64,000 bases of DNA, from the NCBI GenBank assembly GCA_030141605.1, contig JAQGDQ010000189.1, positions 355,217 through 419,216 on the forward strand. Reading direction: 5' to 3'. Within the stretch, counting starts at the first letter, position 1. Every line of letters begins with the position of its first letter. Both the position numbers and the translations under genes were made by a program. Positions 9,477-33,368 of this stretch are shown piece by piece. The notes below the pieces were generated by a model that saw only the letters and a program-made list of their open reading frames with translations, had not been told where the DNA came from and did not search any database. Source of the stretch: Tubiluchus corallicola (lineage: Eukaryota; Priapulida; Priapulimorpha; Priapulimorphida; Tubiluchidae).

Positions 9477-9890
<414 letters not shown>

Positions 9891-10100
9891 GTGCGTGTCT
9901 CACTTATTACTCTCTTTACCAGATAAACTTCAACAAATGATAAAATATACAAAAAATGTACAGATAAACGTTGCATAACTTGGAACATTTCTCAAGGTCG
10001 TTGTTTACTAAATCATCTAACATTGATAAATTATCTTTTGTTGTTTAAATAAACAAAACCAATGCAGAAAGAAAGAGGATTTTAACCCTTTCACACTTAC

Positions 10101-10273
10101 TTCTGTTTATCTGCAGTTCCATAGATGGCTTCATAATTGCCGTAGTAAGCAGGTATCGTACGAACAGGTGGTCGAGCATACAATGATTCTGCGCATGCGT
10201 CAGACTTCTGGACAAAGCTGCCGCTACTGTCCTTGCTGGCCCTTCTTGAATTTTGGCAAAGGTCGCCACTGGC
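10101..10273 (-). CDS. SAMD5: SAMD5-like exon 3 (probable)
   Basis: A 173-bp open stretch between a ttttgtttggcag acceptor and a perfect GTAAGT donor, entering in phase 0 as required and leaving with two bases of a codon. Encodes 57 residues, A/S/K-rich at first ([20 protein letters not shown]) and then [20 protein letters not shown] recognise no domain in it. Support rests on the strong splice sites, phase match and position after exon 2. Confidence 0.5.
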
Positions 10274-13200
10274 CTGCCAAACAAAAATTCTTTAAATAAT
10301 CAAATTATTACAAAACGCAAAATGATTTATATTACAATGAATTGCGAATCACCAACACAGCTACTGATCAAACATGTGATGCTTAACTTTTGTCTACAAC
10401 TGTGATATTTCTGTATTAGATTCATTATACAAATTGTATGCAACAAACAAAATCGCTCTGACCAACCGCCCAACCAACCATCACATACAATTTGTATAAT
10501 CAGGACTATACAGTTAAGCACTCTGCCGACCTGAATACAGTTGGATGGTTGTACTGGGATTGAAGACTGCTTCACTATCAAAACTAATATTCAAAGATTT
10601 AGATGTTGAGACTGCAGAGAGATTTTTCTAACCACATTTGGAGTGGCCTGTACATTCGCACTCAAACAAATGAACAGCCAAAGTCAATATATTGGATGAA
10701 ATCGCCCACAGTGAGTACTGAACACAGCAATCACTCATCTATTGACTCATCAGCCTCAGTGTTGCTTAACTTCAGCGCTATGACTACTTTACTATTCACT
10801 CGACCCGAACATCCTTGTAGAGGACATACTGACACTCTCATTTCCGCATCCGCCTGCCGTAATTTTCCATTCAGTAAGAGTTTATTGCCAAACGTCACAT
10901 GAAGACGATGAGTTAATAATAAGAATTTTTTGATATTGTTCCTGAAAATCACTCACGGAAGATTTTTCCTGGAAGACGCGTCGCTGACGCAGCTCCTCCA
11001 GACAACGTATCACATTTTGAAAATAAGTTTTCAGTTCGTCAGCGTATCGAACAGCAAGTGCCTCCAGGAATTCACGGGATCCTTCCTGAAAAAAACGAAA
11101 ATGTTTATTTGTCGTTAATATTTAACGCATTTACCCAGTCACGTCGAATGTGGTCCGTTAGTGGTTAGTTATTGAATATGTGTTGGTCACTCAGTTAGTC
11201 ATGCTGTCAGTACACCAGCTATTTACAAAAAAAACAAAATGAGTGAGTTGTTTTGTCTTCAGACAGTCAGTTGCAGCCAGCAAACTATTTAACGACCTTC
11301 TAGTCACCTCGATTTGGCAGCCAATGGGCAGCTAGCTTGCGTGATAGTCGGCTAAGCAGAAAGGCAGCTTTACCACCACATCAGTGAAACTAATAAACAA
11401 ACTACAGCAATGATTCAGGAGCAAGCAACCGAGCAAACAACCAGTGAACCAACCAATGCATTACCAGCCAAGCAACCAAGCAAGTGAGAAAACAAGAAAC
11501 CTGTCAACCGAATCACACAGCTATCAAACAAGCAACAAAATAAGCAAACAACCAACTAACAAAGCAACCACCCAATCAACCAATCAGCCACCCAACCAAA
11601 GAGCAAACCAACCAAGTAACCACCAACCAACAAACCAGCCAGCCAGCCTGCCAGCCAACAAACCAACCAGCCGGCCAGCCATGCAACCATCCAGCAAACC
11701 AGCCAAGTAACCACCAACCAACCAACCAACCAGCCAGCCAGCCAACCATCCAGCAAACCAGCCAAGTAACCACCAACCAACCAACCAGCCAGCCTGCCAG
11801 CCAGCCAACCAACCATCCAGCAAACCAGCCAAGCCACCAACCAACCAACAAACTTACCAGCCAGTCAGCCAACCAACCAACAACCAACCAGCCGCCCAAT
11901 CAACCAACCAGTCAGCCAGCCAAGTAACCACTAACAAGCCAACCAACCAGCTACATTAAATCTATGTAATGTTAGCTGGCAGACTGAACGTAGTTTTCAT
12001 ACAATTAATTGAACACAAAAGACGAGGACACTGGTACATTGCTCTCATCTCCATTCATACAGCAGCAAGCTTTATCTCCATGACAATGATAGTCACGGCG
12101 TCTGTTGCCATGACAATAAACACTGTAGCTTCTCATAACAAATTTTTTAAATTCCTCTAGTGCTTTACAATAATGAATTGTGGAATTACAAATATCCATG
12201 GAGCCAGCAGGTAACTGCATGGCGCCTGTCTGTCTAAATAATCTTTACATAGCGTGCCAGAGCTTCCTGTAGTTTGATGGTGGAAGGGAAGGTAATCACA
12301 GCACGCAAAGCTTCTCTTTCTCGATGTGGCTACATCGTAATTATGTAATTTATAGTAAATATAGCAGAAATGTTTAGTTTTCTGATTAAAGACAAAAACA
12401 CGGGGAAACTTTTGGCTAATGTTTACAACCCCCCCCCCCCCACACACACACACACACGCGCGCAAGAAATTAGTTCGTGAAGCAGATTAGGTTTAGGGTT
12501 AGGATTAGAGTTGGGGTTTGGATTGGGGTTAGGGTTGAGGTTAGGGTTGGGGTTAGGATTAGGATTGGGGTTGGTGTTAAGGTTAGGGTCAGTTTTGGGG
12601 CTAGGATTGAAGTTGGGGTTGAAGTTTTATCACATTCAGTAGAATATAATGACATGTAATACATAGTGACATCAAAATTATTACGTCATACTGTCATAAA
12701 TGAATGTTTCATTCACTATCGTTATCATACAAGAATAATTGTACTGCAGTGGGCTAGAGAAGCAAAGGCTTGTATAAACAACCAACTACCATGTAAATCA
12801 CATACAAAAGAAATTGACGAGTGAACAAAAAAAAAGAACAGGGAGAACAGGTTATATCACACAGATACCTAGGCTATTTGAAGTTGTAAAAATTCCAAAA
12901 TTCCAATCTGGACACATTGACCCAAACATAAATAGCACTGTACCTAAGAACGTCCCAGGAAAGCCTAGGAGAGGCGATAGAAAAACAGCAGAAGTAGCGA
13001 AATCGAGCCAGGGAATGCCAACAAGAACAATGCAGGGAATGCCAACAAGAACAATGTAGGGAATGCCAACAAGAACAATGCAGGGAATGCCAACAAGAAC
13101 AATGCAGTGAATGCCAACATGAACAATGCTGTGAATGCCAACAAGAACAATGCAGTGAATGTCGACAAGAACAATGCAAGGAATGCCAACAAGAACAATG

Positions 13201-15236
13201 GATGGAATTCCAACAAGAACAATGCAGTGAATGTGAACAAGAACAATGCAGGGAATGCCGACAAGAACAATGCAGCGTCTACAAAATATACAGCAAATCA
13301 TTTATAGCATGAAGGAAATTGCCACAAATGTTACAGAGAATGGTAAAAACTCATCAATCTATTCACTACGTAGTGCCTTTTATACAGACGCATCTCGCAA
13401 CGTAAATGTAAACTTTGAAGTTAGTCATTAGTGCTAAACAAACCGAATGTTTCCTGACCAGCAGAGCTGAGCGGCCACTTCGAATTGCTCTCCGAGTTTA
13501 ATGTTGACAGAGAGACGTCTGCTGACAGATCGGTACACACGGAGAGGACCTAAAGCATGGGCTCCTATTTATGCGTGCAAATTCAGTTTCTGTTGAGATA
13601 TGATAGCGAAAGTAAAGTCATCAGTAAATACAGTAAGCAAGTTGCTAAATGCGAGTTCGCCAAGGCGTTACATTAGGTCCTCTTTTAATCGACTTCTATG
13701 TAAATGTAAGATTTGGCTTCTGTTTACTTATGGTGATGAAAACCAGGGCTATCTTTAAGCACAGAGAGTCTTGTCCAAACAAAAGGCGTTTTAATGTATC
13801 AGTATTTCACAGCAGCATTGAGTACGCCTTGCAGTTGAATGGTAGATTCCGACTTGTTCTGCTTATCATCTATAATTAACCAACTGAGTAAGAGACTACT
13901 GCTCCACTAACATAACTCTATGGAAGTGACAAGGTAATCAAAGAAATGTTGCAGTTTGCTAAAGGTGAAATGTGTGGTTTAACATCGAATCCTGTTTCAT
14001 TTGATCTGCAAATTTCTGGTTTTCGATTTGCTGTGTGACAGCGATGCTAGAAAGTAAGTCATGTTCATCTTTGTACAAAATGCAAGTAATGAATGTGCAT
14101 CCAGGAGAAATAGAGGTCTCTGCCAACTTTCATTGGCAAAGACCAGGAGAAATAGAGGTCTATGTCAGCTCTCATTGGCAAAGACCAGGAGAAATAGAGG
14201 TCTCTGTCAGCTCTCATTCTTAACGTAGCTGATAACGCGATCTAAGCGTTTCTATTTCATAAACCCAAGCGTTAGGAAAAGACAGAAATTATTGTTTGGA
14301 CATCAGTACAAGTTCTTTAACGAGAACGAAGGTTTCTGTCAGCTCTCATTAATAACTGAATTAGACGTAATCTAACCGTTTCTACTTTAGGTCTTCTGAA
14401 AAGACAGAAACTGTCCTTTGCGTACTATTTGAAAGCAAATCCGGAAGCAATGTTAAAAACTGTGGGTCAGAACAATCTGTTCATTAAAATATTGAAAGGA
14501 AACAAACTACTTTTTCGAAAACTATTTACGTGAAAGAATTATTACCACACAAACATAATTTCGCCACTAGTTCTTCACTGTTACATACATTTCAGCATTC
14601 GCTAGTTAGACGGGAATTTCGGAAAGCGTTGCACAAAAAAGGTGCTGTACTTCTCAGTTCAGATGTTAGTTTGTGACGAACTACACACGTTCGACAGCTC
14701 ATGCGTGAGCACGATAAATCTGAAACTTGAATTTTGATCTTAAAACTTGCCTAGTTTTAGTACAACACACTGAATATCTAACGGTAGCACTGTACTTCAA
14801 TTTTCACTTTCGCAAACACTGCAACACGCTCGTGGAATATTTTTGCTGTTGAAAATTATGTTACTTTGTGATGTCATCTATAGTTGGGCTCACCCACCGT
14901 TAATTAAGTTTTTAATCTATAATTTAATTATCAGAAACGCTTTTGCAATATAAATTGTCTTAAAATGTATACTTTTATCGGACTTGAAAATGGGGTAGTG
15001 TGTGAAAAATCGTCTTCTTCCCTTAATACAACGAGAAAAATTTGACGAGAAAAATGAGCAAACTAAAGCAGCTACATGCGAATCCTGCCTGCGTTCCTCC
15101 TACTGAGCTCCCCCCCCTACACACACGCACTCACGCTCTCTCTCTCTCTCTCCCTTTGTCTCACTCTTACTCTCTGACTCACTCACTGTCTCTCTCTCTC
15201 TCTTTCTCTCTCTCTCACTCTCTCTCTCTCTCTCTC

Positions 15237-15282
<46 letters not shown>

Positions 15283-18200
15283 TCCCTCCCTCCCTCCCTC
15301 CCCCCTCTCTCTCTCAATCTTTCTCCCTCCCTCACTCTCTCTCTATCAATCTTTTTCCCCTCCCTCACTCCCTCCCAAGCCCGCTCTCTCTTTCTCTCTC
15401 TCTTCTCTCTCTCTCTCTCAATCTTTCTCCCTCCCTCACTCTCTCTCTATCAATCTTTTCCCCTCCCTCACTCCCTCCCAAGCCCCCTCTCTCTCTCTTA
15501 CTCACTCACTCACTGTCTCTGTCTCTCTTTCTCTGTCTCACTCGCTTTCTTTCTCTCACTCACTCACTCACTGTCACACACACACACACACACACACCAT
15601 AAAATGTGGAATTTTCGGGCATATGTGCTAATCCCTTCAATTATCTCCAATCAGCAATACCGAACGAATCCGATTGAAACGACCTGATTTGACAGGTAAA
15701 AATCCCATCGGGGGGAATAATCCAGAACGGCTGATAACGGCTTAGACCCTGTTGCGAAATGACAAGTACAAAAGGCACAGAGATAAGGGAGAAATCCCGA
15801 CATTTTTGTCAAACATTACCAATTTGCTTAAAAGGGAAACAAAGGCCGGAAAGAGACGGTTATTGCACATCGTAACGCCACGGGGGAGTCTAAAAGAGAC
15901 GCTCAAGGTCAGCAAGATTATTGAGTTAAAAAGCGTGTAGTAAGAAAAATGCTGAGTGAATACAGTAATTTAAAGGTGATAATAAAACATCAGGCTGTCT
16001 AACTATAGGTAACTCATAGGTTTACTTGAAAGAGGTTGCAAATCATTTAAATACAGGATAGGTATAACTGATTCAGATCTGTGTGTTTGCAGTTTGGGCA
16101 GTCAAACCCCAGAACATTTAATTTTTCATTGTCCGTTACCATTGGTTAGAAAAGATATAAGAGTAAATCTCGAACGCAGCTTAGAAAACAATGACATTCG
16201 AAACATTTACAGAAAGAGAGACTAATGTAATTAAAATGTATATAGATATTGTAAAAGAACTAACCCAAAATGATCTTATAGTAAATTGGTTATACATTGT
16301 TTATAAATATTGGATATATATTTAGAATAAGTAAATCGTAAATTTATTTAATGTACATAGTGTAAAGACTTATTTAACATTTTTGTACTTTTGTGCCCTG
16401 CAAATAGAGGGCTTATTGTATAATTTTCAATAAAGATTTTTAATAATAATAATATAGGTAACTGTGATGTTACTGAGCAGGCGTATTTTTACAGTTATGG
16501 GTCTAGGGGCTTGCAGGAAAGAACAAGTCACTCAGTATATTGGGTTTATTTTATTGTTATCACATAAACTGTTTATGGTGTGCTAGGAGAAAGAACAAAT
16601 CACTCAGTGTGTTGGGTTTATTTTACTGTTATCACTTAAACTGTTTGTGGTGTGCTAAAGGCAAGAACAAGTCACTCAGTATGTTGGGTTTATTTTACTC
16701 TTATCACTTAAACTGTTTGTGGTGTACTAAAGGAAAGAACTACTCACTCAGTATGTTGGGTTTATTTTACTGTTATCACTTAAACTGTTTGTGGTGTGCT
16801 AAAGGAAAGAACAAGTCACTCAGTATGTTGGGCTTATTTTACTGTTATCACTTAAACTGTTTGTGGTGTGCTAAAGGAAAGAACAAGTCACGCAGTATGT
16901 TGGGTTTATTTTACTGTTATCACTTAAACTGTTTGTGGTGCGCTAAAGGCAAGAACAACTCACTCAGTATGTTGGGTTTATTTTACTGTTATCACTTAAA
17001 CTGTTTGTGGTGTGCTAAAGGAAAGAACAAGTCACTCAGTATGTTGGGTTTGTTTTACTCTTATCAGTTAAACTTAGCAAAATAGAACAAAGAAATTTGC
17101 TAAGACTGTCTATAAAGCATAAATTTAAAATATATTACCTCTGAATAGAATTTTTCAGGCGTGGTGGTTGCTGCCATTAACTTGAAAATCGTGACGTAAC
17201 TGGGAGAGTTCGTGACTTTTCGTAAGCTCGCGCTGCTTAAACTAATTCAAACTTCTGCAGCCTACTTAACGTTTACGCAAAAATACTACAAAATTAGCTA
17301 TTTTTTGTAAAAACTTATTATACTTTTGACGAAGAGTGACAGTGCGCTACTTTTCTTCAAATGACGTGATTGGAAGAAGAATGGGTATTGAAAATGGGAG
17401 CACTCAAGCATGAAGTGATCGACTTTATAATGATTTTACTAATTACACGAGGCGCTTATTGCAATTTTATTACTAAATCCTTCTAACATTTTTCGCGAAC
17501 ACTGATATAAGTTTAACTTTCAAGAAGGGTTGCCTTTTCCTTTAATTATAAGTACATGTCGTTTATTATACAGATTTTTTAGAACACACACCTTCACAGC
17601 TCGTGAGCCTTTGTCTGTAGTAATAATTCTTTTGATAAAAAATGCGACTTATTTTAGAAAAAAGGCATAAACTTTCAAGACAATATTGCAAAAAAAACTA
17701 AAAAAGAAAAATTTAAGCCAACGTAGTTTCCTCTTTTCTGCTAGGGTATAATTGTAATGGACGATGTAGTCATTATTTCCAACCCAACTATTGATGACAT
17801 CACAAACTAACACAACCTACAATCACAAAAATATTCCACGAGCGTGTTGCACGTGTTTGCAAAAGCGAAAATTGAATTACAGTGCAACTGTAAGATATTC
17901 GGGTTGTTGTACTAAAACTAGGTAAGCGTTAAGGTGTGTAGTTCGTCACAAACTAACATCTGAACGAGAAGTACAGCACCTTTTTTGTGCAACACTTTCT
18001 GAAATGCCCATCTAACTAGCGAATGGCGAAAACTATGTAACAGCGAAGAACTAGTGGCGCGAAGGCGAAATTGTGTTTGTGTGCTAATAATTCTTTCTCG
18101 TAAATCTTTTCGAAAAAGTAGTTTGCTTCCACTGAAGATACTATGAATTGATGAGAGTGATTTCAATCCCACCATGAACGAATTACCGATTATTAATTTT

Positions 18201-21200
18201 AATGATCCCACTGCAAAACGCTTGCAATCACCATACAGCCACAGCCAAGCCGTGATGATGATGACAAAGCCCTTATGAGGTGCTGTACAGAACCGACGAT
18301 GACTCATGCAAATTAATGTACTTGAGATTTTGATGATAATGTCTTTATTAAACGTGCTAACCACGGCTGGTTTAATTCACCACAAACAGCACTAGCTAAA
18401 TCAATATAATCCACCATTACAAGTGTGTTAACGACGCGTTGGTTAACACGGACTATTATAAACTGTGTTCTAAATGGCTTCATTGAGGTCCTCTCTGCTA
18501 CAACCGCGGGGGGTGTTTCTTCACGCTTGAGTGACTCGCGTTTTTATCTAGACGAGGATCAATGCTGACGACAGAACTCACCAATTTATACAAATCTTTG
18601 ATCGCTTTGAGATAATATCAGTAGTTAGACGTTTGGTCGTCAAGATGAATCAGGCCACCTTTGGGTGTGGTTGGAGGGTGGGGTGGGGGTCTTTTAGTGT
18701 GCTAAAAGAAGCGGTTAGCCTGCAGAAAAGCAAAAACAGCAAAAGAGTCAATGAAACAAGGTGTTTTATTATAGAAAATGGTTTTCTGGGATACGGGGGC
18801 ATTCGTCAACTTACGTATCCTTGCAAGTGGAACCCCTGCTGCTAGCAAATCCATGCAAAACTATAATATAGTGAAGCTACAAGTTTGTGCATCTAGTATC
18901 CCCAAAGAAAATTGTTTGGTTTATGAAATATTACTAAACTGAAAATGCATCTGTGGTTCAATGTACCCAGCACCCCAAATCTTGGCCCTCTACCCAGCAC
19001 CCCAAATCTTGGCCCTGTACCCAGCACCCCAAATCTTGGCCCTGTACCCAGCACCCCAATCTTGGCCCTGTATCCAGCACCCCAATCTTGGCCCTGTATC
19101 CAGCACCCCCAAATCTTGGCCCTGTACCCAGCACCCCAAATCTTGGCCCTGTACCCAGGACCACAAATCTTGACCCTGTATCCAGCACCACAAATCTTGA
19201 CCCTGTACCCAGCACCACAAATCTTGACCGTGCATCTAGCACCCCAAATCTTGGCCCTGTACCCAGCACCCCCATATCTTGACTCTGTACCCAGCACCAC
19301 AAATCTTGACCCTGTACCCAGCACCCCAAATCTTGGGCTGTACTCAGCACCACAAATCTTGACCCCGTACCCAGCATCCCCAATCTTGGTCCCAATTGTG
19401 CCTCTGCTACGCAAGGTTAGTTGCCTCCATGATAACAGGGTGTACAAAATAAAACAACGCTGCCTCGAGAATTCCGGAAGTTACGTTACTCTAAACTACT
19501 ATTGTGCGAACAGTACAGCACTAACAGCATTGTAACTCGACTTACGTGAAAGAATTATTACCAAACAAACAGAATTTCACGTTCGTGCCACTAGTTCTTC
19601 GCTGCTACATGCATTTCGCGATTCGCTAGTTAGACTGGCATAGCGCCTGCATTTCGGAAACACTTTGCACAAAAAGCAGGAGCTGTACCTCCCAGTTCAG
19701 ATGTGTTAGTTTGTGACGAACTACGCAGTTCGACAACTCATACGTGAACACAGCGGTAAATTTGAATTTTTATCTTAAAACTTGCCTAGTTTTAGTACAA
19801 CACACTGAATATGTTACAGTAGCACTGTACTTCAATTTTCGCTTTCTCAAACACGTGCAACACGTTCGAATATGGAATATTTTTGCTATTGAAAATTATG
19901 TTCGTTTGTGATGTGATCAATAGTTGTGCTCGTCCACCGTTAATTAAGATTTTAATCTATTATTTAATTATCAGAAACGCTTTTGCAGTATTAACTGTGT
20001 TAAAATGTATACTTTTTATTGCACTTGAAATCATGATAGTATATGAAATATCATCCTGTCTTGTTTAACAAGTGAAAAGCCTTCATAATTGCTTTCATTT
20101 TTAACCTTTCAGCAGCTAGGACTGCATCTCGAAAAATCAATTGAACAAATTGTCATGATTGCAATTCGACAGCCACTCGACACACTCGAGCAGACACGAA
20201 CATTATAAAACGGCAGATATGATTTTCGTCTACAGCATAGCAGACACGTCTACGACTCATTCACAACAACACACACGATCTCGTGCTGTGCGCCTGATTT
20301 AATTTCAGATAAACAAACAAAGTTGCCTGTAATCGACGCCATAAACAGAATGAATTCGACACTTCTCTACGACGCAGTCTGTACTGTTGTTCAATTACCC
20401 ACGAGTTTATTATAGTGTATTCATGCATAACCTACATTAGAACCGCAGGTTTTATTAAATTCTGCCAATAAATAGAAATTTTTATGGCAAGTCGCTATCA
20501 TGCATGCAGGAGACTAGAATAGGGAAGCCTACATGATGGTAATATGCATGACAATGTGAGGAAGGACTGGTACTTCGGTGTATTCATGCATAACCTACAT
20601 TAGAACCGCAGGTTTTATTAAATTCTGCTAATAAATAGAAATTTTCATGGCAAGTCGCTATCATGCGTGCAGGAGACTGGAATAGGGAAGCCTATATGAT
20701 AGTAATATGCATAACAATGTGAGGAAGGACTGGTACTTTGGTGTATTCATGCATATCCTACATTAGAACCGCAGGTTTTATTAAATTCTGCCAATAAATA
20801 GAAATTTTTATGGCAAGCCGCTATCATGCATGCAGGAGACTGGAATAGGCAAGCCTATATGATGGTAATATGCATGACAATGTGAGGAAGGACTGGTACT
20901 ATATGCAATTAATTTCACTTCAAAGTAATGTAAATTTTTGTTCAAGAAAGTTCTACAATGGCGAATGATGTTTTTTCGTGATATGCTTTTCCACAGTTCC
21001 AGCTGATTTGATGATGATCGGGAAAAGGTCAAAGGTTACGTGTACCAGACAACGCATTTGCCTCGCAGCCTAAGCTGTTGTAATAGTAACAGTTTTATCA
21101 GCTAGCTAGAACCTCACCTAGTTCATTTTTTCTTGTTTCTCAAGCAAGATCCTGCTAGTAAATCACTCCATGTACAGACTAATGCATATTATGTAAGGTC

Positions 21201-24200: not shown

Positions 24201-27200
24201 GAAATGGGCCTTGGTCTCGCCTTAATAAACTTTCACAAGAATGGTTCTAGGTAAAGCCGTTGAGTGTGGATAGATAGATGGATGGATGGATAAATGAGTG
24301 GATGGGTGGGTGGATGGATGGATGGATGGATGCATGCATGCATGCATGCATGGATAGATGGATGGACGGATTGTAATATAATGTGTATGCAAATAATGAA
24401 TTCTAAATTCTAACAGAGACACACTACGGCCGAGCCTGCCATCTGGACGCTCGTCAAAAGAGGCCTTTCACGTGTTTGATTTTAGTTTACTAGCCAAATT
24501 ACAGAAATAATTTACATCAATTATCACACGTTGCTGAGTAGTGATTTGCCTACTTAACATTTCGGAATTAATTACAGGTGATGCGTGAATTTATGAAATT
24601 TTGATGAGTTTGCGTTTGAAATCATGGCGCCCCGGAGAGCTTCATTAAATGTTGAATCTACGAATGAAAAATCTACAGCAGCAGCAAATAAGAAGAGGGA
24701 GTTTCGAGAAAAAGACAATTATTGCAAAAGAGTGATGTTCGTGCGAACACTTCTAATGGCAGGTAATTTAATGTTTAGAAAACAAGATGAAAGAACAGCA
24801 AAGCGAAGTTTGCTAAAGTACAGTCTACGTCAGACGACAACCTGTAAACGTTTGGAAACAAGATGAAAGAACAGCAAAGCGAAGTTCACTAAAGTACAGT
24901 CTACGTCAGACGACAACCTGTAAACGTTTAGAAACAAGATGAAAGAACAGCAAAGCGAAGTTTGCTAAAGTACAGTCTACGTCAGACGACAACCTGTAAA
25001 CGTTTGGAAACAAGATGAAAGAACAGCAAAGCGAGGTTTGCTAAAGTACAGTCTACGTCAGACGACAACCTGTAAACGTTCAGAAACAAGATGAAAGAAC
25101 AGAAAAGCGAAGTTTGCTAAAGTACAGTCTACGTCAGACGACAACCTGTAAACGTTTGGAAACAAGATGAAAGAACAGCAAAGCGAAGTTTGCTAAAGTA
25201 CAGTCTACGTCAGACGACAACCTGTAAACGTTTGGAAACAAGATGAAAGAACAGCAAAGCGAAGTTTGCTAAAGTGCAGTCTACGTCAGACGACAACCTG
25301 TAAACGTTTGGAAACAAGATGAAAGAACAGCAAAGCGAAGTTTGCTAAAGTGCAGTCTACGTCAGACGACAACCTGTAAACGTTTGGAAACAAGATGAAA
25401 GAACAGCAAAGCGAGGTTTGCTAAAGTACAATCTACGTCAGACGACAACCTGTAAACGTTTGGAACAAGATGAAAGAACAGCAAAGCGAGGTTTGCTAAA
25501 GTACAGTCTACGTCAGACGACAACCTGTAAACGTTTGGAAACAAGATGAAAGAACAGCAAAGCGAGGTTTGCTAAAGTACAATCTACGTCAGACGACAAC
25601 CTGTAAACGTTTGGAAACAAGATGAAAGAACAGCAAAGCGAGGTTTGCTAAAGTACAGTCTACGTCAGACGACAACCTGTAAACGTTTGGAAACAAGATG
25701 AAAGAACAGCAAAGCGAGGTTTGCTAAAGTACAATCTACGTCAGACGACAACCTGTAAACGTGTGGAAACAAGATGAAAGAACAGCAAAGCGAGGTTTGC
25801 TAAAGTACAGTCTACGTCAGACGACAACCTGTAAACGTTTGGAAACAAGATGAAAGAACAGCAAAGCGAAGTTTGCTAAAGTACAATCTACGTCAGACGA
25901 CAACCTGTAAACGTTTGGAAACAAGATGAAAGAACAGCAAAGCGAAGTTTGCTAAAGTACAGTCTACATCAGACGACAACCTGTAAACGTTTGGAAACAA
26001 GATGAAAGAACACCAAAGCGAAGTTCACTAAAGTACAGTCTACGTCAGACGACAACCTGTAAACGTTTAGAAACAAGATGAAAGAACAGCAAAGCGAAGG
26101 TTGCTAAAGTACAGTCTATGTCAGACGACAACCTGTAAACGTTCGGAAACAAGATGAAAGAACAGCAAAGCGAGGTTTACTAAAGTACAGTCTATGTCAG
26201 ACGACAACCTGTAAACGTTCGGAAACAAGATGAAAGAACAGCAAAGCCAGGTTTACTAAAGTACAGTCTATGTCAGACGACAACCTGCAAACGTTTAGCG
26301 TTACCCACGTGGTATTCAAATGGTGCTAAAACAGATTTATCTTCTGATTTCGTTTCTGAATGTCGCGGGGATGGAAAACATCAGGGTGACATTTTCTCCG
26401 AGCAGATTCAATTTTGCTGATCACTATAATTTTATATAAAGTTCACACTCACCCGCAACCGAATGCTTAGTTTAATCTACGGCTAAAGAAGATCGAAATC
26501 GAGCCTTACGAGTGTTTTAATGTTTCAATACCCGTCTTGGGATGTCACACTCTGTCAACTAAAGCCAGCCATTTGTTTATGAGAGGCTTTAGTGTGCTAA
26601 AGCACCATATAACCATACACGGCCTAGCCCTGAACAGCACACATAAGTAATATGAAATCAGAAAGCAAGCAGCAAAAGACGACTCCTACATAAGTCAACA
26701 ATATGAAATCAGAAAGCAAGCAGCAAAAGACGACCCCTACATAAGTCAACAATATGAAATCAGAAAGCAAGCAGCAAAAGACGACCCCTACATAAGTCAA
26801 CAATATGAAATCAGAATGCAAGCAGCAAAGGACGACCCCACATAAGTCAACAATATGAAATCAGAATGCAAGCAGCAAAGGACGACCCCACATAAGTCAA
26901 CAATATGAATTCAGGATGCAAGCAGCAAAGGACGACCCCACATAAGTCAACAATATGAAATCAGAATGCAAGCAGGGAAAGATGTCCCTTAGAGGGACAG
27001 CAAAACTTCTGTAAGTCAAAAGTATGGAATCAACGAAGGATGCTCCTATAGGACACAGCAGAACTTGTAAATCAACAATAGAAAAATGGAATTCAAACAG
27101 CAAAGGACGACAACTACGGGAAACAACAGAATTTTTCAAGTCAACAATAGCAAATCAGAATGCAAGCAGCAAAGACAACCCCTACAAGAAACAGCAGAAG

Positions 27201-30200
27201 TTTTGTAAGTCAACAATAGCAAATCAGAATGCAAGCAGCAAAGAACAACTTCTACAAGAAACAGCAGAAGTTTTGTAAGTCAACAATAGCAAATCAGAAT
27301 GCAAGCAGCAAAGAACAACCCCTACAGGAAACAGCAGAAGTTTTGTAAGTCAACAATAGCAAATCAGTATGCAAGCAGCAAAGAACAACCCCTACAGGAA
27401 ACAGCAGAAGTTTTGTAAGTCAACAATAGCAAATGAAAATGCAAGCAGCAAAGGACGACCCCTTACAGGAAACAGCAGAAGTTCTGTAAGTCAACAATAG
27501 CAAATCGAAATGCAAGCAGCAAAGGACGACCCGTACAGGAAATAGCAGAAGTTTTGTAAGTCAACAATAGCAAATCAGAATGCAAGCAGCAAAGGACGAC
27601 CCCGTACAGGAAACAGCAGAAGTTTTGTAAGTCAACAATAGCAAATCAAAATTCAAGCAGCAAAGCCACTGCACACTGTATACTCAGTGCCATATATCAA
27701 TCCATCGCCACGGAATGATTAATCAGATTAATAAAAGTTTTATCGTAATGGATACCGCGGCGCCAAATTTCTCCATTAGTCTGGCTCTAAACGACATGCA
27801 TAGTTCGTCAAAACGATCGCGAGGTGGCGCGTTAACAATCAGTGACGACAACATCAATGCACCTATTAAAACTGTTAAAGATGTCGCTATAGTGTATTTG
27901 GTATAATCACAGTTAAGGAGATATACTTAAATTTTATCTCTGATTAAGTACAGTTGTGATTGAAATGGCTAAAAAGCCCGATGCATAGAAGCCAATTTGC
28001 AGACAACTTTCATACTGCACATGCTGAAATAAATATTTAGTTGTAGCTGTTGCTGTTGCTGTTGCTACTGCCATTGCTGCTGCCGCTTAAAGGAAGACAG
28101 GATGATTTCTCATATGCTACCCCATTTTCAAGCCCATTTTTACGGTAACTTTAACACAATTAATACTGCAAAAGTGTTTTTGATGATTAAATAATCGATT
28201 AAAAACTTCATTAACAGCGGGTGAGTCAAACTATTGATGACGTCACAAACTAACGTAATTTTCAACAACAAAAACATTCACGGGCGTGTTGCACATGTTT
28301 GCAAAAACGAAAATTGAAGTACAGTGCTACTGTAAGACATTCAATGTGTTGTACTAAAACTAGGCAAGTTTCAAGATAAAAATTCACATTTAAAATCTAC
28401 CGCTGTGCTTATGCATGAGCTGTCGAACGTGTGTAGTTCGTCACAGACTAACACATTTGGACTCAGAGGTACAGCACCTGTTTTTTGTGCAACGTTTTCC
28501 GAAATGCCCATCTAACAAGCGAAAGGTGAAATGCATGTAACAGCGAAGAACTAGTGGCGTGAACGTGAAGTTGTGTTTGTGTGGTAATAATTCTTTCGGG
28601 TAAGTCCTTTTTGAAGAAATAGTACGTTTCCTTTCAATATTTTAAAAAATGGATTGTTCTAAACTACAGTTCAAGATTTTGTCCGGTTTTGCTTTAAACA
28701 TTTACAATATCCAGTTTTCTCAGCAATGCATATCAGATATCAATAAAATTATTTGAGCCAACCAACCGTCTCTGCTGCCTATAACTAACTGAGACAACGG
28801 TTCGAGCCAACTGTTTCAAGGTCAAAATGAAGACTAAATGTCACTAAAAGGTCACTAATGTCTTTCGCATTAATTCTGGAAATTTACAACGTTATCGCTC
28901 GCAGAATAGCCAACAAAACGGTCAACAAGCTTGACCTTTTTTCATCCAAGGTCATTGGAATAGTAGCCCAGTTGCAGACACACCTAGGCCTGTGCCTTTA
29001 AATAAATCTAACCTTGCTGCATATTCAACTTATTTCATAAAAAAATTAGAATGACGTTGTGCTTTGTGTTTGATTTAGTAGGCTCATCAGTTTAGTTAAT
29101 CAAGAAACATAAAAAAGAATAAAGAAGAAAAAAACGCGTCAGTAGCGATGATAACAGTGACAACAAAACAGTGTAGTATCAAAGTGAATGGAGGCAAAAA
29201 TCGGAACGCAAATGCCTAAACTTTCGGGTCATCCTGTAGTTCTGTTTCTTGTTGTGATGGTCCTACTACACTGTTTGTAAACACTACTATATTGGGAAAG
29301 AGAGCTGACAGTTAAGAAATAACAACTCGTATTTGTTTATGCATTCAGTGTGTAGACGCTGATGCCAGGCTAATATTGTTCAGGTTTCAGAGTTGGCAAA
29401 CTGTCTGTGAAATTTCAAATCAAATCAAACCGTCCACAAGAATCAACAGACATTGGTACAGCATGTACTCTTAAACTGTTATCACTGTACGCGATAAATT
29501 ATAGTAATATTGCAAATTTATTTGACGGAGAATAAATGTCGCTTAGAAATTTCATTTACGACTGTATGCATAGATTTTTGAATTAAATAGTATAGCTTTG
29601 TTAGCGGACATATAACCGCATCACTGTGATTATCATATAGGTAAAATATTTGTTTATCACATGCATACAAATGCTTAGTAAATAGTTTTTTCGCTTCATA
29701 GAGTTCACAACTAAATTTGTATATACTGTGTATACCTTGTGCAGCTATGTTGAGTCAAATTGTTAGTATGATCTGGAAATCATTACCCGAGCTCCGCCCG
29801 CTGATAAAACCATCGGGTATGCGTCGAGTTTGTAATTCTCATGTTGAAAATTTGATTTTCAGAAATGAAATATCTATCTATCTCTAAACGTTGTACAGCA
29901 TGGAAGACGTGTTGTGTACTGCCGTGTACATTTGCTATAGCTTAAAGTACAAGAAAACCCTCTACTTACATAAAGCTTTAAAATTTCGTAGTGAAGTTTT
30001 ATGCCACTTACATACTGCCTTTTGCATACAGGGCTTGCGTCGACAGTTACGTTGTAAGCTCCCGCGATGATCGTTAAATGCAGCCATTTTGGTAAGTCAT
30101 TTGAAACAAGTTTAGATAACACTGAGTAAAGTTTGAAAAAATAATCAGAGCATTCGTATCACACACGTCACTGACTAAGTAAAATTTTAAATTACCGTAT

Positions 30201-33200
30201 CATGTCAATAAGATTAAAAATACGCTTTTGGTGGTGCACCCTAGCGGTTAGTCAACGACATTTTACCATTTGGTGAAAACAGTTTAAACAATTAATAATT
30301 TTCTTTTCTAATTACATAAGTCTTTTCAGCAGGTAAGCGGAATGCTAAGTAATATTACAACTTTTCATGGAAAGTTTTTTGGGACATAATTTAACATTTC
30401 CTTTTCTATCCCCGACTTACGTTGTGTAATGGCGCCGTCGGAACAGTATTGCGGGAGATTTAAAATGAAAACAAACAAAAAATCTTTTCTAAGCGATAAT
30501 GATATACGCACAAAATTGCTATAAAGTAATATAAATTTTAAGACGATTTTTTTGAAACCTACTTCAGGTGCCTCTTCTCTTGTCCTTTTAAAATGCTCGA
30601 GTTCTATTTTAGTGGGTGCGAATGACTGACAACTTTCTAGAGTTCTATGACCTGCTTGTAGATAAGGCTATTTATTAACAACAAATTTCTTTCTGCCTGC
30701 ATATTTTCGTAGTGGGTGTATAAAAGCAGGCAAGGATTTTCTTAAATATGCTCTACGTGTTTACTGTTTTCTAAAAGACATTACTAAGTGCACTTCAAGG
30801 TTTCAACAACTTCTTACGGCATTTAGATAACAATTGAGAGCTGCAAAATGTATAATGCTACTTACTGGTCACGTGACGTCGTCAGGAAACTTCGTTAAAA
30901 ATGTGCAAATTTACGGAAAAAACTTTCAACTTCGAAAATATTATAAATTATTAGATTGGATTAGATTAGACTAGATTAGATTAGATTAGATTAGATTAGA
31001 TAGTTTATTTTCACAACACATCACATATTTTCAGCATATAAAACATCTTTTTTCATAATGTTCAAAAGCAATGATGAATGTTGTGGGGAGAAGGGAGGAG
31101 CCTAGCTTTCAATCCTTTCGCACAAGTGTGGAGGTAGACGCCTCGTTAATAATATCAACGTCATCATCACTGCTGGCGTCATCACCACCAACACTCACAA
31201 TCTCATCTGATTTTCAAAACACAGCTAAACACACTACAGTGCAGACAGAATGTACAGTGTTCTAAACTTACTAGTTTGCACTTATTCGCTCGTTCTAACC
31301 GCTTGGAAACGTGGAAATTTCCTGTTCACTAACAAGATTTTACTTGGCTTCACAACGTACAGTGGACCAATTAATAGTTGTAGTGATTCATTGGGTAACA
31401 GTATGCTTCTATGCCACGCGTTTGTACCTATACCGTGTTTATAGCAACGGGTCAGCTGACACTTGAAAACTGGACACAATTTGAATTTTTATACGACAAA
31501 AGTAAGTTACAAAACAATCGTTGGTTTGTGCTTGTGGTAACGCGTTCGCTTTCCGTCTGGGAGGTAGAGAGTTCAATACTGCGGTCGGTCATACAAAAGA
31601 CTTTAAAAATGGTACCTGCTGTTGCCCTGCCTGGTACTCAGGGTAAAGTGGGGCGATAATAGTCTCCGTTATGCAGTTTTAGATTATTTACAATATGTCC
31701 AAAAGTTCTTTGGAGCTTATGTTAATTGCTGATCCAAAAAGCCGACTTTCTACTACTACTACTACTACTACTACTACTATTATTATTATTATTATTACTA
31801 TTATCGTCATCGCTATCGTCATCATCATCATCATTATTATTATTATTATAAATATCCATGATCACACTTATTCTAGTCAGAGATACTTATGTTCATAAAA
31901 TATTCCGGCGAAGGAACCGAAAAACTAATAATTTCCTAACATAAAGCCTAGCATAAATTATAATATGATATGCATGATATTAATGTCGAGCAGCGGTCAA
32001 GATGTAATTGCAACTACCGTCCACGACCAGCTCAGGACGAAGAGGGATATTGTAGAAAAGTACTATGTAGCTTAGTCGGTTAAAACCAATCTCATATTCA
32101 ATCTCAGCTAGGGGTGTCAATGTCAAAGATTTTCTTTATTACTTCATGCCAATTGTTGATCATACCAACTGTATTTTTGTACAACTCTGAGCTCTGGACA
32201 TTAAAACCAAATCATAAAGCTGAAATCGATGCGTTTTAAAGGCAAAATTACAGAAACGTATTGGGTATTAGATGGCCAAAGAAAATTTCAAACAAACATC
32301 TATATGAAAAAATACAAGAAGAACATTGGACAAGAAAGTAAAAAGATGCCGTTTAAGATGGATCGGGTGTATGCTTAGACTACATGAAGACGTTCCAGTG
32401 AAGATAGCTCTTCAACAAGCCATACAACCAGCTAAAAAACCTGCAGGAAAACAAATGTTGACATATTTAGATTTTGCACAGAAAGATTTAAACACTTCAG
32501 CATTGATCCACTTGGGGCATTGCAGCGAGCAGGGAGTCCTGGCATGGGGAGGTGAACAGAATCATGTCCTCATGATTCACTGGATGATCATTATGTTGAA
32601 GATTTTGACGTACAGTTGTTTACAATTTACAAATCGTGGGAGCTTCTTGTTTGTTGAATTATTAGTACCAAACTTTATCAGTGATACCAGCTTTTATAGC
32701 AGACGATGATAATGATGGTGACAATATAGATGATAAGACGACAGTGATAATGATGTGACCTGATGATGATGACGACGACGACCATACTACCAATCATGAT
32801 TATGATGCTTAGATGCTAACTATGACTACAATTATTAATGATGAACATGACTGTTGTAAGAGGAACTTACCGATTTAGAAAAGGGAGGGGCATTAAGGAC
32901 TATCCCTTCCTTCGCCAGTTTATCCCTCAGCAACATTTTTAATTTTAGCTTTGGTATCCTAGTTTTACCACCTTCCCGGTCGGAGAGTTCCGTGTCGGAT
33001 TCACTCACACTGTTTCCACGTGCCCGGAACACACCCGGAAGTAAAGGTACCCCTCTCCATCCCCAGACCGAATCCTCATAATCGTAATATTGCACAGGAA
33101 ACACTTGACGTCTGAGTTCATCCTCCCGGATATGATCACCTTTTTCCAGAGAGAAGTAAACGTGAGCGGCTCCCAACTCTTTCAATTTCTTCACGGCGTT

Positions 33201-33368
33201 TAACATTGCCATTCGGTCAGTTTCATCCGAGACGCCAATTGCGTCCAAATCCGGATCAGAGATGAGTTTACAGATCTCCAATTCGTCATATCCGTTTTCG
33301 ATAAACGGCTGGCTGTACTGGTCAAGTCCTAGAGATTTGAGCCACTCGTCCACAATGTTACGAGGCAT
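10101..33368 (-). CDS. SAMD5: SAMD5/SASH1-family SAM-domain adaptor (three exons seen, 3' end not found)
   Basis: Gene model joining exons 32871-33368, 10957-11085 and 10101-10273, all on the minus strand with AG/GT junctions and matching phases (0, 0, then phase 2 out). The N-terminal SAM domain and the K-L-K-L-K basic helix identify the SAMD5/SASH1 family of cytoplasmic signalling adaptors. The second exon continues exactly as SASH1 does after the same linker. The first intron is 21.8 kb and holds nearly all the minisatellites of the left half of the window. The gene lies 3.8 kb downstream of ARID1 in the same orientation. No stop codon exon could be assigned with confidence; a short candidate at 6239-6275 is recorded under rejected items. 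Confidence 0.72.
10957..11085 (-). CDS. SAMD5: SAMD5-like exon 2: SASH1-type helical segment
   Basis: A 129-bp exon (43 codons, phase 0 to 0) between a tttttttcag acceptor and a GTGAGT donor. Encodes [20 protein letters not shown] then [20 protein letters not shown]. Joined to exon 1 it gives [24 protein letters not shown], which aligns without gaps to the human SASH1 stretch [23 protein letters not shown]. It also resembles the SASH1 N-terminal QQYADYY...MEELRKRRV helix. Vertebrate SAMD5 lacks this segment. Confidence 0.75.
11415..11950 (+). repeat. CCAACCAA/CCAGCCAG tetranucleotide tract
   Basis: About 530 bp of irregular 4-bp units (AACC, CAGC) with scattered caagtaaccaccaacca higher-order blocks. 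Long minus-strand W/G/L frames are artefacts. Confidence 0.92.
12427..12460 (+). repeat. C-tract and (CA)n
   Basis: Run of C followed by cacacacaca then cgcgcg, directly before the telomere-like tract. Confidence 0.9.
12483..12632 (+). repeat. Degenerate telomere-like TTAGGG/TTGGGG tract
   Basis: About 150 bp of G-rich hexamer variants (GGGTTA, GGATTA, GGGTTG). It resembles a decayed interstitial telomeric repeat in the vertebrate/metazoan TTAGGG orientation. Confidence 0.7.
13008..13285 (+). repeat. 24-bp minisatellite
   Basis: About 11 units of GGAATGCCAACAAGAACAAT plus GCAG. The unit length is divisible by three, so long frames stay open on both strands without implying coding. Confidence 0.93.
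13286..14094. other. No gene seen
   Basis: Part of the large SAMD5-like intron. A minus-strand open stretch at about 13449-13555 looks protein-like but has no good splice sites in the needed phase. Confidence 0.35.
14098..14222 (+). repeat. 42-bp tandem repeat, about 3 units
   Basis: Unit begins CAGGAGAAATAGAGGTCTCT and contains ctctcattggcaaagac. A related agctctcatt word recurs at 14340. Confidence 0.85.
14453..15026 (-). mobile_element. TTAA-flanked MITE family A, copy 3
   Basis: Inverse orientation relative to copies 1 and 2. Contains tcgccactagttcttcactg, gatgtcatctatagttgggc and aaaatggggtagtgtgtg. TTAA at both ends, 574 bp. Confidence 0.8.
15131..15597 (+). repeat. CT-rich and (CA)n microsatellite block
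   Basis: CT dinucleotides with two copies of a ctcaatctttctccctccct block (about 110 bp apart), then CACT units and a terminal (CA)n. Abuts MITE copy 3. Confidence 0.92.
16040..16452 (+). mobile_element. LINE ORF2 C-terminal fragment and tail
   Basis: The frame at 16052-16170 encodes [20 protein letters not shown] then [14 protein letters not shown], the CxC...TPEHLIF.CP zinc-binding-like motif at the C-terminus of many non-LTR ORF2 proteins. The 3' end is caataaagatttttaataat followed by AAT repeats. Confidence 0.78.
16525..17075 (+). repeat. 72-bp minisatellite, about 7.5 units
   Basis: Unit contains aagaacaagtcactcagtat, gttgggtttattttactgtt and atcacttaaactgtttgtgg. The 72-bp period keeps a 181-codon frame open. 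Units differ by 1-4 substitutions. Confidence 0.94.
17076..17774. other. No gene seen
   Basis: AT-rich intronic sequence without recognisable repeats. Confidence 0.35.
17775..18130 (+). mobile_element. MITE family A, copy 4 (partial)
   Basis: Internal and 3' part of family A, from caactattgatgacatcaca to ctaataattctttctcgtaa. The 5' third is missing. Confidence 0.75.
18131..18957. other. No gene seen
   Basis: Intronic sequence of the SAMD5-like gene with mixed composition. No convincing frame. Confidence 0.35.
18962..19392 (+). repeat. 27-bp minisatellite, about 16 units
   Basis: Unit TACCCAGCACCCCAAATCTT plus GGCCCTG, with a CACAAATCTTGACC subfamily in the middle (19155-19230 and 19285-19320). 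Occasional 1-bp changes shift the frame between units. Confidence 0.94.
19540..20068 (-). mobile_element. MITE family A, copy 5
   Basis: Inverse orientation. Contains cttacgtgaaagaattatta, ccactagttcttcgctgcta and gatgtgatcaatagttgtgc. Right end tcatcctgtcttgtttaa carries TTAA; the left end is truncated. Confidence 0.78.
20410..20905 (+). repeat. Tandem triplication of a 163-bp unit
   Basis: Three copies starting GTGTATTCATGCATAACCTA at about 20415, 20578 and 20741, each ending gtgaggaaggactggtact. Units are about 95% alike by eye, so the event is recent. Confidence 0.93.
20906..22059. other. No gene seen
   Basis: Unique-looking intronic DNA of the SAMD5-like gene. Confidence 0.35.
22060..22345 (+). 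repeat. Direct duplication of about 95 bp
   Basis: aaattaggtactgttctatt ... tcggctatctaatcatg at 22066-22160 recurs with about 10% difference at 22250-22345. Confidence 0.8.
22346..23867. other. No gene seen
   Basis: Intronic DNA with a poly-C run at 22455-22470. Open frames such as 23507-23767 have no family resemblance. Confidence 0.35.
23868..24040 (-). mobile_element. MITE family A, copy 6 (fragment)
   Basis: Only the terminal third is present: gtgatgtcatcaatagttgg to acatgaaaatggggtagtat. Confidence 0.72.
24268..24372 (+). repeat. (GGAT)n microsatellite with GCAT core
   Basis: gatggatggatgg units flanking an internal gcatgcatgcatgcatg run. Confidence 0.93.
24624..26420 (+). CDS. Hypothetical two-exon reading frame spanning a minisatellite
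   Basis: ATG at 24624 opens [20 protein letters not shown] ... FVRTLLMA, which ends at a GCAG/GTAATT donor (exon 24624-24762, phase 1). After the entire 76-bp minisatellite, an AG at 26297-26298 would open exon 26299-26420 in the matching frame ([17 protein letters not shown] ... IQFC, stop TGA at 26418). The total is about 86 residues. It lies inside the large intron of the SAMD5-like gene, on the opposite strand. No family is recognised and the acceptor lacks a good pyrimidine tract, so this may be chance. Confidence 0.18.
24772..26299 (+). repeat. 76-bp minisatellite, about 20 units
   Basis: Unit GTTTGGAAACAAGATGAAAG, AACAGCAAAGCGAAGTTTGC, TAAAGTACAGTCTACGTCAG, ACGACAACCTGTAAAC. Very homogeneous. 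Between about 25390 and 25890 the units alternate tacaatctacg and tacagtctacg, i.e. a 152-bp higher-order dimer. Confidence 0.96.
26636..26985 (+). repeat. 51-bp minisatellite, about 7 units
   Basis: Unit AAGTCAACAATATGAAATCA, GAAAGCAAGCAGCAAAAGAC, GACCCCTACAT. Grades into the related 70-bp array that follows. Confidence 0.93.
26986..27665 (+). repeat. 70-bp minisatellite derived from the 51-bp unit
   Basis: About 9 units of GTCAACAATAGCAAATCAGA, ATGCAAGCAGCAAAGAACAA, CCCCTACAGGAAACAGCAGA, AGTTTTGTAA. It equals the 51-bp unit plus about 19 bp (gaaacagcagaagttttgt). Confidence 0.93.
28087..28697 (+). mobile_element. TTAA-flanked MITE family A, copy 7 (best full-length copy)
   Basis: A 611-bp copy with TTAAAGGAAGACAGGATGAT at the left and GTCCGGTTTTGCTTTAA at the right. 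Clear TTAA on both sides and end-inverted TTAAAG[G/C]AA[G/A]AC. Good reference sequence for the family. Confidence 0.85.
28698..29941. other. No gene seen
   Basis: Unique-looking intronic DNA. Confidence 0.35.
29942..30591 (+). mobile_element. TTAA MITE family B, copy 2 (full length)
   Basis: A 650-bp copy with TTAAAGTACAAGAAAACCC at the left and TTCTCTTGTCCTTTTAA at the right, i.e. inverted ends TTAAAGKACAAGARAA with flanking TTAA. Contains no reading frame. Confidence 0.8.
30592..32177. other. No gene seen; simple repeats
   Basis: Contains (ATTAG)n at 30955-31003 and (TAC)n/(ATT)n at 31750-31850. No supported coding. Confidence 0.4.
32178..32570 (+). mobile_element. LINE reverse-transcriptase remnant
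   Basis: Two frames joined by a shift encode [33 protein letters not shown] and [20 protein letters not shown]. The E.WTL, LGI.W and R.RWIG..LR motifs are those of the C-terminal region of non-LTR reverse transcriptases. Contains stop codons, so dead. Confidence 0.8.
32571..32870. other. GAT/GAC-rich simple sequence next to SAMD5-like donor
   Basis: gatgatgatgacgacgacga tract near 32760 in the 5' end of the large intron. Confidence 0.6.
32871..33368 (-). CDS. SAMD5: SAMD5-like exon 1: SAM domain and basic helix
   Basis: Starts at ATG 33368 ([20 protein letters not shown]) and runs 166 codons to a perfect GTAAGT donor, phase 0. Residues 3-66 form a complete SAM domain, with the [20 protein letters not shown] and DAIGV core closely matching human SAMD5 ([26 protein letters not shown]). 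A disordered S/E/D-rich linker follows ([16 protein letters not shown]), then [20 protein letters not shown] and LNAPPFSKS, equivalent to KLKLKIMIRDKL..DGIHLSKPPYS in SAMD5. The start matches the family start position. Confidence 0.94.

What the first reader, a model, noticed from the sequence alone, without database searches (positions are those of the whole stretch)
10957..33368. SAM exon of SAMD5 type splices to a SASH1-type helical exon
Exon 32871-33368 encodes a SAMD5-like SAM domain and basic helix, ending in phase 0. Exon 10957-11085 begins in phase 0, and the junction [24 protein letters not shown] aligns without gaps to the SASH1 stretch [23 protein letters not shown]. Vertebrate SAMD5 stops soon after PPYS. 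This suggests the ancestral protein carried both parts and that vertebrate SAMD5 lost or replaced the second, while SASH1 kept it. The seen sequence gives the exons and splice sites; the evolutionary reading is inference.
Basis: partly seen in the sequence, partly recalled or inferred. Interest (0 to 1): 0.7.

Follow-up and report, generated by a model that had tools for sequence, protein, structure and literature searches.

The report
SAMD5 and SASH1 as one gene
In this animal's genome the parts that humans carry as two neighbouring genes, SAMD5 and SASH1, appear to be one gene, joined at what looks like the junction found in human tumours as a SAMD5-SASH1 'fusion' RNA, so that 'fusion' may be an old gene showing through.

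Summary
Exon 33368-32871 (-) encodes a SAMD5-type SAM domain and basic tail ending in phase 0; exon 11085-10957 (-) is phase 0 at both ends. The genome search found one place for each. Exon 2 matches SASH1's N-terminus better (residues 53-92, 18/40 identical, score 79 against 43). Beyond the window, on the same contig and strand, further SASH1 parts follow in order: residues 179-211, SH3, SAM1, a helical bundle, SAM2 and a stop. So the SAMD5-type exon looks like the 5' coding exon of a SASH1 gene of about 105 kb. Its tail plus exon 2 resemble SASH1's C-terminal bundle, with the intron at the same column and phase. Humans have that domain divided between SAMD5 and SASH1, neighbours at 6q24, and a recurrent in-frame tumour transcript joins SAMD5 exon 1 to SASH1 exon 2, apparently the same junction. 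Best reading: one ancestral gene, split in vertebrates. Limits: no RNA evidence, one genome judged non-vertebrate by divergence, human letters partly recalled, and a 58 kb gap before SH3 bridged by collinearity alone.

The parts
32871..33368 (-). Exon 1: SAMD5-type coding exon, 166 codons, own ATG, donor |gtaagt, ends in phase 0
   Evidence: one match in the genome at E<=1e-3 with its SAM (6 candidates scored)
33180..33359 (-). SAM domain (residues 4-63) with Tyr27 and Asp40, two Eph-contact residues of human SAMD5 named in the eLife section I read
   Evidence: Pfam SAM_1; gapless to 5zrz_B; positions; PMC5993539 section 10
32871..32942 (-). Exon 1 tail [24 protein letters not shown], read as the first helix of an N-terminal bundle copy
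   Evidence: part of a gapless alignment to the C-terminal bundle of the same gene; on its own it is weak (score 34, 7 of 2000 shuffles reach it)
11086..32870 (-). Intron 1 (21.8 kb), phase 0, gt...ag; same column and phase as the intron inside the C-terminal bundle
   Evidence: its removal in RNA is inferred
10957..11085 (-). Exon 2: counterpart of SASH1 53-92, read as helices 2-3 of the N-terminal bundle copy, phase 0/0
   Evidence: one place found in the genome at E<=10 (2 candidates scored)
10101..10273 (-). Candidate exon 3 (173 nt, starts in phase 0, ttggcag|...|gtaagt); open and in frame with exon 2, no homology found; its end phase does not fit the acceptors seen at the 179-211 exon
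   Evidence: no Pfam match

Best explanation
The two exons are the first two coding exons of a SASH1-family scaffold gene whose 5' exon is what vertebrates carry as the separate gene SAMD5. The gene runs on the minus strand from the window's 33368 (contig C1720:388584) to a stop codon about 105 kb away (C1720:283905-283903). It encodes, in order: SAMD5-type SAM, helical bundle copy 1 (exon 1 tail plus exon 2), the SASH1 179-211 stretch, SH3, SAM1, helical bundle copy 2, SAM2. Likely working, by inference: the N-terminal SAM docks the scaffold on the SAM domain of Eph receptors through its mid-loop, as human SAMD5 SAM does with EphA5, while SH3, SAM1, SAM2 and the bundles recruit signalling and cytoskeletal partners. 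In vertebrates the gene was divided inside bundle copy 1: SAMD5 kept the SAM and helix 1, and SASH1 kept helices 2-3 behind a different first exon. The halves stayed neighbours and can still be spliced together in frame, which would explain the recurrent SAMD5-SASH1 transcripts in tumours. Shown here: exons, phases, collinearity, homology. Inferred: E1-E2 splicing in RNA, continuity across the 58 kb between 179-211 and SH3, the helical nature of copy 1, polarity, function.
For: (1) Exon 2 aligns without gaps to recalled human SASH1 53-92, 18/40 identical, starting at the splice acceptor; score 79 against 43 for the C-terminal stretch; shuffle control. (2) On the same contig and strand, in SASH1 order: 179-211 (58% identity, E 1.5e-4, C1720:352032-351934), SH3 (60% and 47%, E 7e-10 and 9e-12, 294090-293971 and 292711-292481), SAM1 (47%, E 2e-7, 291432-291277), bundle (62.5% and 56%, E 0.003 and 1e-6, 287063-286992 and 285505-285398), SAM2 in two exons (E 2e-6 and 0.013, 284615-284424 and 284058-283951). 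Pfam on the joined exons: SH3_2 E 1e-7, SAM_2 E 1e-8 and 1.6e-11. With splice sites chosen by homology, phases chain for SH3a-SH3b-SAM1, SAM1 to the next large open exon, and bundle-bundle-SAM2a-SAM2b-stop. (3) Joined exon 1 tail plus exon 2 against the C-terminal bundle of the same gene: gapless, 19/55 identical, score 77, 0 of 2000 shuffles (max 55) when copy 2 is cut at its best donor; 20/57, score 83 when its frame is read two columns on. In both copies the intron falls at the same column in phase 0, as in the second locus on C49 (read by eye). (4) Exon 1 tail scores 93 against shuffle max 42 to the recalled human SAMD5 tail. (5) Human SAMD5 and SASH1 lie 772 kb apart at 6q24; an in-frame SAMD5 exon 1-SASH1 exon 2 transcript occurred in 4 cases with RNA-seq on 5 chordomas, confirmed by RT-PCR, without copy-number aberration in those samples (PMC5352057, passages); in 3 of 48 neuroblastoma transcriptomes (PMC7653769, passages) and 4 grade I meningiomas (PMC6489307, passages).
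Against: No RNA was available. If intron 1 is retained a stop follows 11 codons later, giving a short SAMD5-like protein. Between the 179-211 exon (352 kb) and the SH3 exon (294 kb), tblastn with SASH1 212-546 finds nothing at E<=3, and long cysteine-rich open frames on both strands lie there, so the two halves could be separate genes. Candidate exon 3 leaves 2 bases over, while the acceptors at the 179-211 exon need 2 or 0, so exon 3 and that exon do not join directly; an unseen exon is needed or exon 3 is wrong. Some splice sites I chose were not the best scoring ones (SAM1 and SH3b donors). The tail alone is weakly like bundle helix 1 (7 of 2000 shuffles reach its score). Pfam does not recognise the bundle. 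A second SASH1-like locus (C49) shows no convincing SAMD5, exon 2 or 179-211 exon on its contig (best E for exon 2 0.16). Human SASH1 and SAMD5 letters outside PDB-covered domains are recalled. The organism was never identified; it is judged non-vertebrate from divergence alone.
Confidence: 0.84

Rival explanations
1. Two genes in tandem, as in vertebrates: exon 1 is a stand-alone SAMD5 gene that ends by intron retention or at an unseen exon, and exon 2 belongs to a SASH1 gene with its own first exon inside intron 1.
For: Vertebrate arrangement; retention of intron 1 gives a stop after 11 codons; intron 1 is 21.8 kb, room enough for a promoter.
Against: SASH1 residues 1-60 find nothing at E<=5 in intron 1. 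The recalled SAMD5 second-exon peptide finds only short matches there (10 listed, best E 3.0, longest 13 columns); both are weak tests. Tail plus exon 2 together resemble one domain with the intron at the same column and phase as in the C-terminal copy.
Confidence: 0.1
2. The fused state is derived: SAMD5 and SASH1 were separate neighbours in the common ancestor and were joined in this lineage.
For: Only one genome outside vertebrates could be read; neighbours on one strand can fuse.
Against: The human halves (recalled), put together, give a 61-column alignment with one single-residue gap to the complete bundle near SASH1's C-terminus (score 80, 0 of 2000 shuffles), so they look like pieces of one original domain; a join would have had to hit the homologous column and phase by chance.
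Confidence: 0.08
3. Exon 2 is a chance open frame and the likeness to SASH1 is coincidental.
For: It is short (43 codons) and matches no Pfam family.
Against: E 8.7e-4 in the window with the match starting at the acceptor; 0 of 100 shuffled SASH1 queries reach its score; it sits in order upstream of the other SASH1-like exons.
Confidence: 0.01

Closest known systems
Human SAMD5
   Same: SAM of the same type (36 of 62 residues identical to 5zrz_B), Tyr27 and Asp40 kept, and the KLKLK...RDKL...GI.L..PP[YF]S tail (human tail and start recalled)
   Different: Human SAMD5 ends soon after this tail (recalled); here the exon ends in a phase 0 donor that fits a SASH1-type exon
Human SASH1 (SASH1/SLy adaptor family)
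   Same: Counterparts of residues 53-92 and 179-211, SH3, SAM1, C-terminal helical bundle and SAM2 in the same order
   Different: Here a SAMD5-type SAM and a first helix for the N-terminal bundle stand in front: three SAM domains and two bundle-like regions
SAMD5-SASH1 tumour fusion transcript (PMC5352057, PMC7653769, PMC6489307; passages read)
   Same: SAMD5 exon 1 joined in frame to SASH1 exon 2 (exon numbers from PMC5352057), apparently the same junction as here
   Different: Reported as a fusion of two genes in tumours; here it would be the germline gene arrangement
SAM-like helical bundle before SASH1 SAM2 (PMC10252437, section 5.2 read)
   Same: AlphaFold-predicted bundle at SASH1 1092-1170, said there never to have been reported; its sequence is conserved here at 62.5% and 56% identity
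   Different: A second, N-terminal copy appears here, made from the SAMD5 tail plus exon 2; the passages and section I read do not mention one

Membership tests
SAMD5 | SAM domain closest to SAMD5 SAM | tested here: met
   best of 41 distinct PDB sequences at E<=1 is 5zrz_B, human SAMD5, E 5.2e-18
SAMD5 | Eph-binding mid-loop residues Tyr27 and Asp40 | tested here: met
   same positions; binding itself not tested
SAMD5 | Basic KLKLK tail ending PPYS | tested here: met
   score 93 against shuffle max 42 to the recalled human tail
SAMD5 | Short protein that ends soon after the tail | tested here: inconclusive
   phase 0 donor gtaagt fits exon 2; a short read-through form (11 extra codons) is possible
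SASH1 | N-terminal YAD segment (SASH1 53-92) | tested here: met
   18/40 identical to the recalled human letters, gapless
SASH1 | SH3 followed by SAM1 | tested here: met
   SH3_2 E 1e-7, SAM_2 E 1e-8 on the joined exons
SASH1 | C-terminal bundle and SAM2 | tested here: met
   bundle 62.5% and 56% identity; SAM_2 E 1.6e-11; best PDB match is SASH1 SAM2, 2dl0, E 6e-14
SASH1 | Disordered SPIDER region before SH3 | tested here: inconclusive
   SASH1 212-546 finds nothing at E<=3 in C1720:294130-351930; disordered regions diverge fast
SASH1 | One transcript from exon 2 to SAM2 | not testable with these tools
   no RNA data; collinearity and a partial phase chain only
SAMD5-SASH1 fusion transcript | SAMD5 exon 1 joined in frame to SASH1 exon 2 | tested here: inconclusive
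   exons and phases fit; the human exon 2 boundary is known to me only as 'exon 2' in PMC5352057, without letters; no RNA here

The most novel reading that the evidence does not exclude
SAMD5 and SASH1 are the two halves of one ancestral Eph-coupled scaffold gene that vertebrates cut inside a helical domain. The recurrent human tumour SAMD5-SASH1 'fusion' is then not a rearrangement but residual cis-splicing of the ancestral transcript, which restores the broken N-terminal bundle and attaches an Eph-binding SAM to SASH1.
Probability: 0.6. Interest if true: 0.8.

Novelty: new variant of a known kind. Interest (0 to 1): 0.66.

Why it matters
It gives an evolutionary reason for a recurrent cancer 'fusion' that was reported without copy-number change: the two human genes may be severed halves of one, still in splicing register. 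It predicts that SAMD5 and SASH1 act in one pathway (Eph receptor to SASH1 scaffold), that a cryptic helical domain exists twice in the ancestral protein, and that the SAMD5-SASH1 transcript may occur in normal tissue and should be judged with care as a tumour driver or marker. All of this is directly testable.

Tried and rejected
Pfam on the joined exons: apart from SAM, only a weak MC2 match (E 0.098 and 0.013, below its cut-off), taken as chance. Pfam does not recognise the bundle in the human or the window-side sequences I scanned. Candidate exon 3 has no homology, does not chain directly to the 179-211 exon, and is kept only as a candidate. I searched intron 1 for a vertebrate-type SAMD5 second exon and a SASH1-type first exon and found nothing convincing. 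SASH1 212-546 was not found between the 179-211 and SH3 exons. Relatives of exon 1 in viral and prokaryote contigs: none confirmed. The attempt to name the phylum by a mitochondrial protein did not complete. Literature: 0 papers hold both SAMD5 and 'invertebrate'; of the 30 papers holding two of SASH1, gene fission, amphioxus, SAMD5, none has a title or listed abstract start on a SAMD5/SASH1 split (listing only). These searches cover only the open-licence library; sequence databases may already hold fused gene models.

Full report
Observation. Exon 33368-32871 (-) is an open frame of 166 codons beginning [10 protein letters not shown] and ending NAPPFSKS|gtaagt in phase 0. Exon 11085-10957 (-) is preceded by a pyrimidine-rich ttttttcag and runs [43 protein letters not shown]|gtgagt, phase 0 at both ends. 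Exon 1 holds a SAM domain (Pfam SAM_1 E 1e-11). With exons 1, 2 and candidate 3 joined as query, its closest solved relative is human SAMD5 SAM (5zrz_B, E 5.2e-18; 36 of 62 residues identical), well ahead of SASH1 SAM1 (8j1i_H, 2.2e-6). In the whole assembly (343.5 Mb, 2344 contigs; the window is C1720:355217-419216) exon 1's SAM has one match at E<=1e-3, and the joined tail plus exon 2 query matches only these two exons at E<=10. That search scores only its best first-look candidates (6 and 2), and one search did not list the gene's own C-terminal bundle, so it speaks to close copies, not distant ones. No call named the organism. I take it as non-vertebrate because a vertebrate SASH1 should be much closer to human than 60% in SH3 and 45% in exon 2; that is inference.

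Exon 2 is a SASH1 exon. As a query against the window, SASH1 hits this place with E 8.7e-4. None of 100 shuffled SASH1 queries came near (best 27.3 bits against 34.7).

The rest of the gene. I fetched 100 kb of the same contig beyond the window's low end and searched it, joined to the window, with SASH1. On the same minus strand and in SASH1 order lie: residues 179-211 at C1720:352032-351934 (58% identity, E 1.5e-4), SH3 in two exons (294090-293971 and 292711-292481, E 7e-10 and 9e-12), SAM1 (291432-291277, E 2e-7), helix 1 of the C-terminal bundle (287063-286992, 62.5%, E 0.003), its helices 2-3 (285505-285398, 56%, E 1e-6), and SAM2 in two exons (284615-284424 and 284058-283951, E 2e-6 and 0.013) with a stop at 283905-283903. 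Pfam confirms SH3 and both SAMs on the joined exons. With splice sites chosen by homology, not always the best-scoring ones, phases chain: SH3a-SH3b-SAM1 at 0 and 0; SAM1 ends with one extra base and the next large open exon needs two; bundle-bundle-SAM2a-SAM2b at 0, 0 and 0. Two stretches do not chain yet. Candidate exon 3 leaves two bases, while the acceptors at the 179-211 exon need two or none, so an exon is missing there or exon 3 is wrong. The exons between 179-211 and SH3 were not recognised, so continuity there rests on collinearity with vertebrate SASH1.

Two copies of one helical bundle. A review section I read (PMC10252437, section 5.2) notes that AlphaFold predicts an unreported helical bundle just before SASH1 SAM2 (1092-1170), and warns it could be an artefact. 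In this gene that region is encoded by an exon ending SEEPYTDK| and an exon beginning |[19 protein letters not shown], with a phase 0 intron. The exon 1 tail plus exon 2 (..[27 protein letters not shown]..) aligns to it without gaps: 19 of 55 identical, score 77 where 2000 shuffles reach at most 55, if copy 2 is cut at its best donor; 20 of 57 and 83 (shuffle max 48) if its frame is read two columns further. The intron falls at the same column in the same phase. Exon 2 alone is significant (56, 0 of 2000), the tail alone only weakly so (34, 7 of 2000). A second SASH1-like locus on contig C49 has the same intron in its bundle (EPYTQK|GGACCIPSALV, read by eye). The orthologous human sequences are SAMD5's tail plus SASH1's own N-terminus (recalled; hybrid score 160 to the window's joined exons, with one single-residue gap). 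No structure was predicted here; 'helix' and 'bundle' for copy 1 rest on this likeness.

What this says about vertebrates. Human SAMD5 keeps the SAM and helix 1; human SASH1 keeps helices 2-3 behind a different first exon (recalled). The genes sit 772 kb apart at 6q24 (PMC5352057, passages). That paper reports a recurrent in-frame transcript joining SAMD5 exon 1 to SASH1 exon 2 in four cases, with RNA-seq on five chordomas, confirmed by RT-PCR and without copy-number aberration. Its authors call it an intrachromosomal translocation and propose a role in the tumour; its passages hold no word of read-through. Others report it in 3 of 48 neuroblastoma transcriptomes (PMC7653769, passages) and four grade I meningiomas (PMC6489307, passages); [quoted passage not shown] The junction appears to be the one seen here in the germline. 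I saw no evolutionary explanation in those passages. In the open-licence library no paper holds both SAMD5 and 'invertebrate', and a further search listed nothing on a split of the two (titles and abstract starts).

Function. Human SAMD5 SAM binds EphA5-8 and EphB1-4 SAM domains strongly; in the EphA5 complex its mid-loop is used, the Tyr27Phe change abolishes binding to EphA5, and Asp40 lies at the interface (PMC5993539, passages and section 10). Both residues are kept in exon 1 at the same positions. The likely role of the ancestral protein is therefore an Eph-docked scaffold with SH3, three SAMs and two bundles. This is inference from homology; I did not look for Eph receptors in this genome.

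Limits. There is no RNA evidence and only one genome outside vertebrates. The recalled human letters outside PDB-covered domains need checking. The second locus on C49 shows no convincing SAMD5, exon 2 or 179-211 exon on its contig (best E for exon 2 0.16), so this genome also has a SASH1-like gene apparently without the N-terminal part. SH3 plus SAM1 identities are A-B 93/150, A-human 81/151, B-human 83/150 (C49 exon borders approximate), which does not settle when A and B parted.

Noticed in passing
C1720:318760-340557 (L003-L005), outside the window: Four long uninterrupted frames (651, 1050, 1060 and 1096 codons stop to stop) of a cysteine-rich (9-11%) protein family, on both strands, between the 179-211 exon and the SH3 exon of the SASH1-type gene; the 828 aa of one copy that I scanned match no Pfam family at E<=1. 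They look like a gene cluster nested in a SASH1 intron.
   Followed up: partly
C49:94211-102284 (L021, L022): Second SASH1-like locus with SH3, SAM1, a PRDSGCY motif shared with recalled human SASH1, helical bundle and SAM2, but no convincing SAMD5, exon 2 or 179-211 exon on the contig.
   Followed up: partly
window 37205-38974 (-); perhaps also 46399-47676 and 56470-57204 (-): An ARID1/Osa-type frame (BAF250_C, E 1.5e-103) ends about 3.8 kb upstream of the SAMD5-type exon on the same strand. The other two frames may be further exons, but 46399-47676 has no Pfam match and 56470-57204 was not scanned. Human ARID1B lies on 6q as well (recalled), so this may be old linkage.
   Followed up: no
window 5717-5806 (-) and near C1720:342780, C1720:261917, C49:34921: 5S rRNA-like element (Rfam 39.3 bits against a cut-off of 38). 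A 5S motif pattern finds 5 places in the stretches held; 4, the window's own included, look alike well beyond the motif, probably a 5S-derived dispersed repeat. The fifth, more degenerate, lies in the intron after exon 2 near window 10773.
   Followed up: partly
window 9463-9978, 15042-15602, 18945-19535: Simple-repeat tracts and short tandem arrays in and around the introns give long, probably spurious open frames.
   Followed up: no
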